In this document: positions 28,816-31,800 of the stretch, in pieces
Position numbering within the stretch: position 1 is the first letter of the stretch
Layout: each line of letters begins with the position of its first letter
Assembly (NCBI GenBank): GCA_963921795.1
Contig: OY997657.1
Span: 3,185,316-3,249,315, forward strand
DNA from: Nannobrachium achirus
Taxonomy: Eukaryota > Chordata > Actinopteri > Myctophiformes > Myctophidae
Length of the DNA: 64,000 nt
Direction: 5' to 3'
Translations under genes and position numbers: made by a program
Notes under the pieces: model-generated
Seen by the model: only the letters and a program-made list of their open reading frames with translations
Told to the model about the DNA's origin: nothing
Databases searched by the model: none

Positions 28816-31800
28816 CTGGTAATAGAAATATGATATGATATTAATGATATTATATTATTACACTAGATTAAACACTTCACTCCATCTGGCATGGAGTCAT
28901 CTGGTAATAGAAATATGATATGATATTAATGATATTATATTATTACAGTAGATTAAACACTTCACTCCATCTGGTAATAGAAATATGATATGATATTAAT
29001 GATATTATATTATTACAGTAGATTAAACACTTCACTCCATCTGGTAATAGAAATATGATATGATATTAATGATATTATATTATTACAGTAGATTAAACAC
29101 TTCACTCCATCTGGTAATAGAAATATGATATGATATTAATGATATTATATTATTACAGTAGATTAAACACTTCACTCCATCTGGCATGGAGTCATCTGGT
29201 AATAGAAATATGATATGATATTAATGATATTATATTATTACACTAGATTAAACACTTCACTCCATCTGGCATGGAGTCATCTGGTAATAGAAATATGATA
29301 TGATATTAATGATATTATATTATTACAGTAGATTAAACACTTCACTCCATCTGGTAATAGAAATATGATATGATATTAATGATATTATATTATTACAGTA
29401 GATTAAACACTTCACTCCATCTGGTAATAGAAATATGATATGATATTAATGATATTATATTATTACAGTAGATTAAACACTTCACTCCATCTGGTAATAG
29501 AAATATGATATGATATTAATGATATTATATTATTACAGTAGATTAAACACTTCACTCCATCTGGTAATAGAAATATGATATGATATTAATGATATTATAT
29601 TATTACAGTAGATTAAACACTTCACTCCATCTGGCATGGAGTCATCTGGTAATAGACATATGATATGATAATAATGATATTATATTATTACAGTAGATTA
29701 AACACTTCACTCCATCTGGTAATAGAAATATGATATGATATTAATGATATTATATTATTACAGTAGATTAAACACTTCACTCCATCTGGTAATAGAAATA
29801 TGATATGATATTAATGATATTATATTATTACAGTAGATTAAACACTTCACTCCATCTGGTAATAGAAATATGATATGATATTAATGATATTATATTATTA
29901 CACTAGATTAAACTCTTCACTCCATCTGGTAATAGAAATATGATATGATATTAATGATATTATATTATTACAGTAGATTAAACACTTCACTCCATCTGGC
30001 ATGGAGTCATCTGGTAATAGAAATATGATATGATATTAATGATATTATATTATTACAGTAGATTAAACACTTCACTCCATCTGGCATGGAGTCATCTGGT
30101 AATAGAAATATGATATGATATTAATGATATTATATTATTACAGTAGATTAAACACTTCACTCCATCTGGTAATAGAAATATGATATGATATTAATGATAT
30201 TATATTATTACAGTAGATTAAACACTTCACTCCATCTGGCATGGAGTCATCTGGTAATAGAAATATGATATGATATTTATATGAGATACTTTAATGGTTT
30301 CCTGTGGAAATAAGCTTAGTCTTTTCATAGATCTCCTTTTAGTAGACCTTGTACCAGTGAACTGTACCGTCATGAAACTGTACCTTTTCCTATGCAAACT
30401 TCTAATAAAGTCTTCAATCAATCAATATTATATTATTACAGTAGATTAAACACTTCACTCCATCTGGTAATAGAAATATGATCTGATATTAATGATATTA
30501 TATTATTACAGTAGATTAAACACTTCACTCCATCTGGTAATAGAAATATGATATGATATTAATGATATTATATTATTACAGTAGATTAAACACTTCACTC
30601 CATCTGGTAATATAAATATGATATGATATTAATGATATTATATTATTACAGTAGATTAAACACTTTGTTCTTCACTGACCCTGGCATGGAGTCATCTGAA
30701 ACACAATGATCATATCATATACAGTATATCATATCATATCATACAGTATATCATATAATATCATATCATACTAGAAAGGCGCCTCAGGGTGACAAGCGAC
30801 CTCGCCCTTCTTGGCCATCTGGCCAGTGATGTATATCAGAACAGTTACCCATATATGGAGATACCTGGTACCCAAGGAGATCCATGTACTGTATATGGAG
30901 ATATGCTGTCAGATCCCAAACATGTTTACTCAGTTATTCGTTATGTGAAAGTCCTATGACATTTGACATCATAATATACAATCCCTTTTATGCCCATACA
31001 TGGAGATCCCTGTCTGTAGAACCAGCCACACAAGACACATGTGTCTTGGCCATCTGTCTTGGCCTTATATGGATTCTGTTAGTGTGGTATGTGGTATGTG
31101 GCCTCCATATATGGGCATTTCCATATGAAGTCCTGTTAGATATGGGCCTAATATTGATGGCATCAGGGATCTCCATGTATGGGCATAAACAGGATTCTGT
31201 TAGTGTGGTTCCCCTGACATCACAGTGAAGTCAGAGCATGATGTCAGAGCAGCAAACCCATAGACCGTAATAAAGTGTACACATCCAGACGGACAGAGTT
31301 CCGTTTTACATACTAAACTGCGACCTTCGGTCGCAATTCTTGTTCCAGTCCAGCCTTTAGTGACAGCGATCAAACCCAAACTCTCTAGAGCACAGAAGGC
31401 CCAGTCCCCCTCATGCCAAACCTTTTAGACATGTTTTACTACTTTGAAAAAAGAAGAAAAATACATTTGAAAATAGTTCAAATATTCAAACTCACAGCGC
31501 AGATTAGTATGTGAACGGTCACAGCTTGTCCGTATGTATCTCTGTCTGTCTGTCACTGTGGTTCTATGGGTTTGTCGCTCTGACATCATGCTCTGACATC
31601 ACTGTGATGTCAGGGGAACCACTCTTAACAGAATGTGTTTGCTGCTATGACATCACTCTCTGGCTTCACTGTGATGTCACACTAACAGAATCCCTTTTAT
31701 GCCCATATATGGAGTTCCCAGATGTCATCAATATTAAGCCCATATCTAACAGGACTTCATATGGAAATGCTCATATATGGAGGCCACATACCACACTAAC

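What the first reader, a model, noticed from the sequence alone, without database searches (positions are those of the whole stretch)
28816..30710. Tandem array of ~22 copied splice acceptors in front of the class II beta membrane exon
Each 70/85-bp unit repeats the acceptor TTCTATTACCAG plus the first bases of the transmembrane exon. Reading on from any extra acceptor (for example the outermost TGTGTTTCAG at about 30700) meets an in-frame stop within a few dozen codons, before the membrane span. Use of a decoy would therefore give a class II beta chain without an anchor, or an mRNA subject to decay. Array length could tune the splicing or surface level of an immune receptor.
Basis: partly seen in the sequence, partly recalled or inferred. 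Interest (0 to 1): 0.82.

Follow-up and report, generated by a model that had tools for sequence, protein, structure and literature searches.

The report
Copied splice sites in fish MHC genes
In this fish, many immune-receptor genes (MHC class II beta) carry runs of copied splice sites beside two of their exons; the runs look like unstable DNA repeats that the gene tolerates rather than a proven control switch, but they offer a natural test of how cells choose between identical splice sites.

Summary
Confirmed. On the minus strand, 24 acceptors (23 extra plus the real one at 28815) precede the membrane exon of an MHC class II beta gene with open exons. The same gene has nine copies of the exon 3 splice donor and a 37-bp array at the start codon. 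The donor array occurs at 37 or more genomic places; 26 of 30 examined loci, chosen by match to the acceptor unit, have an extra acceptor. Two loci with identical exon 3 bodies have 4 and 23 donors. All 23 decoys reach a stop within 37 codons, but composition alone predicts that; each stop lies 164 nt or more before a splice junction, so decay is likelier than a soluble chain. In 12 loci the decoy exon copies diverge like intron spacer. Best reading: 'mirage' minisatellites, known from amphioxus, spread through a vertebrate MHC family and probably passed over by exon definition. Function as a tuner is unproven; no RNA data were available.

The parts
28815..30697 (-). Acceptor array: 24 acceptors (23 extra plus the real one), units mostly of 70 or 85 bp, each an intron 4 end plus the first bases of exon 5
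28699..28815 (-). Exon 5, connecting peptide and membrane span (117 bp); real acceptor AG at 28816-28817, donor GT at 28698
28393..28421 (-). Exon 6, cytoplasmic tail RIAVPTTN and stop; its motif was found in 18 of 30 loci
30280..30425 (.). Foreign insert (about 143 bp) inside one array unit, ending in (CAAT)n on the plus strand; LINE/SINE-like by eye, not searched
34180..34908 (-). Donor array: nine donors identical over CACCCAG|GTACAC at 84/86-bp steps; each unit = last 43 nt of exon 3 plus about 43 nt of intron 3
34866..35079 (-). Exon 3, first part of the beta-2 Ig domain (214 bp, PF07654)
33570..33637 (-). Exon 4, second part of the beta-2 domain (68 bp)
36221..36493 (-). Exon 2, beta-1 domain (273 bp, PF00969)
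36607..36664 (-). Exon 1, leader (ATG at 36664)
36657..37081 (-). 37-bp array x 11.5 ending at the start codon

Best explanation
The array is a 'mirage' minisatellite: a tandem repeat born from a short duplication across an exon-intron boundary. In an ancestral class II beta gene, the end of intron 4 with about the first 32 nt of exon 5 was duplicated once; 22 of the 30 loci examined have one to five extra copies. In the window's lineage the unit lost a few bases and was amplified to 24 acceptors by unequal exchange or slippage, and most units lost 15 bp between two CCAGATG words. A second such array grew at the exon 3 donor. I infer that the cell mostly uses the site next to the exon body on each side, because that gives the shortest exon (exon definition), so both arrays are removed with the introns and are close to neutral; leakage to a decoy would mostly give mRNA that is degraded. 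Shown here: anatomy, spread over loci, shared duplication junction, fast copy-number change, near-identity of donor units between some diverged loci, neutral-like divergence of the decoys in 12 loci. Inferred: the site choice, the decay and the mutational mechanism.
For: Units are copies of a boundary on both sides of the gene. Spread: donor unit at 37 separate places on 12 contigs, a lower bound (clustered by eye); at least one extra AG-preceded acceptor copy in 26 of 30 loci examined. Single origin of the acceptor duplication: the junction AACAAG|GTGTTTTAAT is shared by loci of C12, C6, C18, C14 and C10, with variants on C5 and in the window's outermost copy. Turnover: extra copies number 2, 2, 4, 10, 12, 14 and 23 in seven C20-type loci; L017 and L022 have identical exon 3 bodies but 4 and 23 donors. 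Homogenisation: L017 and L026 have exon 3 body dS 0.46, yet the 43 intronic nt after the first donor are 98% identical; single-donor loci L025 and L034 differ from close relatives by 12-18% there at dS 0.03-0.07. Neutral-like decoys: divergence over 66 pairs of 12 loci is decoy exon 0.068, spacer 0.080, real exon start 0.026. The genes are coding: exons open in the window gene, PDB match to class II beta chains at best E 5.3e-38, dN below dS in all 10 pairs of the five C12 loci compared. Precedent: lancelet Adh, globin, troponin C and PGBD5 boundary repeats, reported (PGBD5: inferred by its authors) not to disturb splicing.
Against: No RNA was seen, so use of the real acceptor and silence of the decoys are assumed. 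Eighteen of 23 decoys are identical to the real acceptor over 40 upstream bases, so leakage is plausible. 103 of 106 extra acceptor copies keep AG and 74 of 74 donor copies, real ones included, keep GT; homogenisation explains this, but so could selection. Outermost decoys match the first 15 exon bases very well (1.7% mismatch) although the search for copies itself allowed at most 3 mismatches there. Among C20-type loci, the window's included, exon 3 body dN about equals dS (0.05-0.07), so purifying selection on the long-array genes themselves is not shown. Synonymous divergence of the membrane exon in the 12 loci is only 0.015, so that block may be homogenised and the neutrality test is limited. 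Exon edges as a whole are not hit more often than intron windows (37 of 175 against 555 of 2533), so nothing marks edges as special targets.
Confidence: 0.73

Rival explanations
1. The array is a splicing brake: decoy acceptors compete with the real one, send part of the transcripts to decay (or, less likely, to an anchorless chain), and array length sets the amount of class II on the cell.
For: 18 of 23 decoys equal the real acceptor over -40..-1; all 23 decoys lead to stops and, given exon 6, to predicted decay; in 10 of 12 C12/C6 loci the decoy reads DSMPEAVKNKVF-stop or a close variant (my reading).
Against: Decoy copies diverge like spacer in the 12 loci tested; stops are expected by composition; copy numbers vary widely between near-identical paralogs; distant decoys would make exons of up to about 2 kb, unfavourable for exon definition (recalled).
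Confidence: 0.13
2. The arrays are kept because they promote exchange between class II loci: repeats beside exons act as landing pads for gene conversion and unequal crossing-over, shuffling exons and exon ends between chromosomes.
For: The 43 intronic nt of the first donor unit are 91-98% identical between C20-type and C5/C10 loci while exon 3 bodies differ at dS 0.41-0.46; donor arrays lie at 37 places on 12 contigs.
Against: Exchange may be a by-product and no benefit was tested; against C12 loci the same 43 nt are only 82-90% identical with gaps; acceptor units are not homogenised between subfamilies (C5 hits 72-78% identical).
Confidence: 0.09
3. Artefact or dead gene: the array is an assembly error, or the gene is a pseudogene in which splice sites no longer matter.
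For: Tandem repeats are error-prone in assemblies (recalled); dN about equals dS among C20-type loci in the exon 3 body.
Against: Arrays of different length with unit variants occur at many loci on many contigs; the six exons of the window gene are open, with splice dinucleotides, and the joined protein matches class II beta.
Confidence: 0.05

Closest known systems
'Mirage' minisatellites of amphioxus (Adh3, globins BflGb6/BflGb9, troponin C; PGBD5 similar); passages of PMC3087553 and PMC3902484 read
   Same: [quoted passage not shown] many units with AG/GT; variable copy number; concerted evolution of units.
   Different: Here in a vertebrate MHC family, with donor and acceptor arrays in the same gene, up to 24 acceptors or 23 donors at one locus, repeated over dozens of places; BflGb6 haplotypes had 6 and 3 units. 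Effect on splicing untested here.
Minisatellites in salmonid class II genes (DAA 3'UTR marker, PMC2386828 passages; a cis-acting beta-gene intron minisatellite in brook charr is recalled only)
   Same: Length-variable repeat inside an MHC class II gene.
   Different: In the passages read the repeat is a 3'UTR marker; nothing there says it copies splice sites.
Tandem repeats in intron 2 of Midas cichlid class IIB (PMC5310070 passages)
   Same: Same exon plan (273, 214, 69 and 114 bp there; 273, 214, 68 and 117 here) and tandem repeats in introns.
   Different: Repeats reported for intron 2; no exon-edge copies mentioned in the passages read.
Intron gain by tandem duplication (PMC4974935, search listing with start of abstract only; Rogers model as cited in PMC3087553)
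   Same: Duplication across or creating splice signals.
   Different: No new intron was found here; the arrays appear to sit inside existing introns.

Membership tests
Mirage minisatellite (lancelet type) | Tandem repeat whose unit spans an exon-intron boundary | tested here: met
   Units contain exon 5 start plus intron end, and exon 3 end plus intron start
Mirage minisatellite (lancelet type) | Units carry splice dinucleotides | tested here: met
   103 of 106 extra acceptor copies with AG; 74 of 74 donor copies, real ones included, with GT
Mirage minisatellite (lancelet type) | Length instability | tested here: inconclusive
   Strong differences between paralogs; alleles or tissues of one locus could not be compared
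Mirage minisatellite (lancelet type) | Concerted evolution of units | tested here: met
   Within-locus near-identity and donor-unit identity between C20-type and C5/C10 loci far above the exon body
Mirage minisatellite (lancelet type) | No interference with regular splicing | not testable with these tools
   No RNA collection for this animal
MHC class II beta gene | Beta-1 domain, C1-set beta-2 domain, membrane span | tested here: met
   PF00969 and PF07654 over cut-off; joined exons match class II beta chains; hydrophobic span read in exon 5
Neoteleost-type class IIB (split beta-2 exon; the taxon link is recalled) | Beta-2 domain coded by two exons | tested here: met
   Exon 3 of 214 bp and exon 4 of 68 bp, as in the Midas cichlid (214 and 69)
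Regulated decoy-splicing (poison) element | Decoy sequence conserved above neutral background | tested here: not met
   Decoy exon 0.068 against spacer 0.080 in 12 C12/C6 loci; outermost copies keep AG in 24 of 27; not tested between species
Regulated decoy-splicing (poison) element | Decoys used in RNA in a regulated way | not testable with these tools
   No transcripts available

The most novel reading that the evidence does not exclude
Paired donor and acceptor arrays form a VNTR-based rheostat in dozens of class II beta loci: array length at each allele sets the share of transcripts lost to decoys, and exchange between arrays on different chromosomes keeps re-setting it, so class II dose evolves through repeat length rather than promoters.
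Probability: 0.12. Interest if true: 0.85.

Novelty: new variant of a known kind. Interest (0 to 1): 0.6.

Why it matters
Vertebrate splicing models argue over whether the first-transcribed site, the strongest site or the site that defines the shortest exon wins (recalled). This family holds, on the acceptor side, decoys identical to the real site (five in the window over 66 nt) and, on the donor side, runs of identical donors, in natural genes with 0 to 23 extra acceptor copies. Order, distance and exon context can thus be separated without engineering. If decoys leak, repeat length becomes a heritable setting of immune-receptor dose; if they do not, it shows how far splice-site choice ignores local sequence. 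It also brings lancelet 'mirages' into vertebrates (no vertebrate case seen in the listings), at the scale of a gene family.

Tried and rejected
Rejected: that in-frame stops prove a designed decoy (shuffled intron gives the same). Rejected: that exon edges in general are targeted (37 of 175 edge windows against 555 of 2533 intron windows have a local copy; related loci are not independent, and the intron controls include the inner parts of the edge arrays). Rejected: that AG retention in exact copies shows selection (103 of 104 exact 16-mers follow AG, but exact matching selects undiverged copies and the real acceptors are among them). Rejected: my first reading of 28653 as exon 6; it is a copy of the exon 5 end, and the coding exon 6 is at 28421. 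A recalled fish class II tail motif found no exon 6. Species: the snake pipefish was guessed from genome size, but its assembly has 7,391 scaffolds (search listing) and ours 564 contigs, so it is left unnamed; one search gave nothing of use. Papers: no hit on splice-site copies in fish class II in the listings; one search returned nothing. Passages read without use: Dijkstra et al. on teleost class II (no mention of introns) and a C. elegans study of intronic minisatellites near alternative exons (PMC4039745). An earlier count gave 15 units of 70 bp; the recount is 14, plus the 213-bp unit.

Not done: a genome-wide search with the exon 5 DNA, one with the 37-bp array and one with a donor pattern never got an answer.

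Full report
What is there. The window lies in a 1.66-Gb genome of 564 contigs, at C20:3185316-3249315. On the minus strand sits an MHC class II beta gene: leader 36664-36607, beta-1 exon 36493-36221 (PF00969), beta-2 exon in two parts 35079-34866 (PF07654) and 33637-33570, membrane exon 28815-28699 and tail exon from 28421. The joined mature protein matches class II beta chains in the PDB (best E 5.3e-38). The exon plan is close to that reported for Midas cichlid class IIB (273, 214, 69, 114 bp; passages of PMC5310070).

The array. In front of the membrane exon there are 24 acceptors, 23 of them extra. The 23 spacings are 14 of 70 bp, 7 of 85 bp, one of 92 and one of 213 bp; the 70/85 difference is 15 bp between two CCAGATG words, and the 213-bp unit holds a foreign insert of about 143 bp. 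Eighteen of 23 extras are identical to the real acceptor over -40..-1, five of those also over +1..+26. Sequence close to the site therefore cannot tell these five from the real one.

A second array. Exon 3 ends in CACCCAG|GTACAC. That end, with 43 exonic and about 43 intronic nt, is present nine times (donors at 34866 to 34180). Use of donor 2 would add 28 residues in frame; donors 3-9 bring stops. A third array of 37-bp units runs up to the ATG; 10 of 11 loci with a visible leader show at least two such units before the ATG (read).

Spread. The beta-1 family has 87 hits in the genome. The donor query gave 154 matches (list cut off, 40 of 98 candidates scored), which I cluster by eye into 37 places more than 5 kb apart on 12 contigs; each place has a match long enough to span at least two donors. 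The acceptor query gave 75 matches. The 16-mer of the exon start occurs 104 times, control 1; the 100 listed places fall into 49 clusters by eye, 19 of them with two or more copies; 103 of 104 follow AG. Of 31 stretches fetched by place (20, 11), 29 show the membrane exon (L031 and L047 do not); with the window gene that is 30 loci. 26 of these 30 have at least one extra acceptor copy with AG; L043, L044 and L046 have none, and L024's copy lacks AG. Of 14 loci in which the exon 3 end was visible, 12 have two or more donors; L025 and L034 have one. Fetched loci were chosen because they matched the acceptor unit, so these fractions are not a random sample of the 87.

Origin. In loci of C12, C6, C18, C14 and C10 the first 32 nt of the exon are joined to GTGTTTTAAT; C5 copies and the window's outermost copy show variants of the same junction, and the other C20-type copies look like it minus a few bases. 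A single old duplication explains this. Later growth was local: extra copies number 10 in L023, 5 in L027 and 23 in the window gene, but one in most C12 loci.

Turnover and exchange. L017 and L022 have identical exon 3 bodies but 4 and 23 donors. Between C20-type loci with arrays (window gene, L017, L022) and the C5/C10 loci the exon 3 body differs at dS 0.41-0.46, yet the 43 intronic nt after the first donor are 91-98% identical; against C12 loci, which have a 79-bp form of the unit, the figure is 82-90% with gaps. Two single-donor loci, L025 and L034, differ by 12-18% in that stretch from close relatives (dS 0.03-0.07). A caveat is that a lone donor may be the variant last unit of a collapsed array. 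I read this as exchange between arrays, perhaps across chromosomes, rather than constraint on the intron.

Is the decoy in use? Reading from all 23 decoys gives a stop after 7-37 codons; only 28815 reaches the membrane span. Shuffled intron stops within 37 codons in 96.5% of trials, so this is no sign of design. The stops lie 164-1947 nt before the exon 5/6 junction, which by the recalled 50-55-nt rule means decay. Tail exon 6 was recovered by motif in 18 of 30 loci (in one of them, L041, without a usable reading); in 12 it was not found by that motif. In 12 C12/C6 loci, pairwise divergence over 66 non-independent pairs is 0.068 for the decoy exon copy, 0.080 for the spacer, 0.026 for the real exon start and 0.378 for the stretch just outside the decoy. 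The decoy behaves like spacer. Synonymous divergence of the membrane exon is lower still (0.015), so this block may itself be homogenised and the test has limited reach. In the five C12 loci compared dN is below dS in all 10 pairs; among C20-type loci dN about equals dS (0.05-0.07), so constraint on the long-array genes is not shown.

How it probably works. On both sides the site beside the exon body gives the shortest exon (117 and 214 nt); each further copy lengthens it. Exon definition, as known for vertebrates (recalled), would favour the inner site, and the arrays leave with the introns. This step is inference. It agrees with reports on lancelets, where boundary repeats called 'mirages' are reported or inferred not to disturb splicing (passages of PMC3087553, and PMC3902484).

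Are edges special? A copy of the 40-nt edge window was found within 2.5 kb for 37 of 175 edges: leader start 5 of 11, exon 3 end 9 of 12, exon 4 end 2 of 24, exon 5 start 18 of 30 at this stricter cut, exon 5 end 3 of 30, the other five edges none. Intron windows gave 555 of 2533. Edges as such are hit no more than introns. A simple reason for tolerance is that a duplication across one edge always leaves one whole exon with one intact site. An intronless UCH-family gene in the same window shows a like array at its stop codon.

Verdict. The reading as a tuner is possible but unsupported. The structure is best filed with mirage minisatellites, as a vertebrate, gene-family-wide, two-sided variant. 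My searches of the open library listed no vertebrate case that I could recognise, which covers only papers held there and, for most, only titles and abstract starts.

Noticed in passing
window 10707-11186 (-): An intronless UCH/USP-family reading frame (11128-12765) has its last coding codons repeated at 52- or 58-bp steps past its stop, nine copies with the coding one: a repeat array at the coding/3'UTR edge.
   Followed up: partly
window 33508-33637 (-): The end of exon 4 with its donor has a degenerate copy about 65 nt downstream (GAAACCTATAATGGTGGACTGGAGTCGG), seen by eye; the stricter scan did not score it.
   Followed up: partly
window 28630-28700 (-), also L028, L035, L037: The 3' end of the membrane exon is copied downstream; in L028 and L037 the copies have an acceptor in front and a donor behind, making possible 13-nt micro-exons.
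   Followed up: partly
window 36657-37081: 37-bp array x 11.5 directly before the start codon; 10 of 11 loci with a visible leader have at least two units. Effect on promoter or 5'UTR unknown.
   Followed up: partly
genome G000: 87 hits to the class II beta-1 domain family, far more than in most fish (recalled), on many contigs.
   Followed up: no
window 49586-49981 (-): A C1-set exon that looks like a class II alpha-2 domain, so alpha and beta genes may lie near each other.
   Followed up: no
window 2599-4080 (-) and 13611-14720 (+): Long reading frames matching adenosylhomocysteinase and galactosyltransferase families, apparently without introns.
   Followed up: no
L029 and L039, just before the decoy acceptor: An (AC)n microsatellite runs up to the CAG of the outer acceptor, in place of the polypyrimidine tract.
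   Followed up: no
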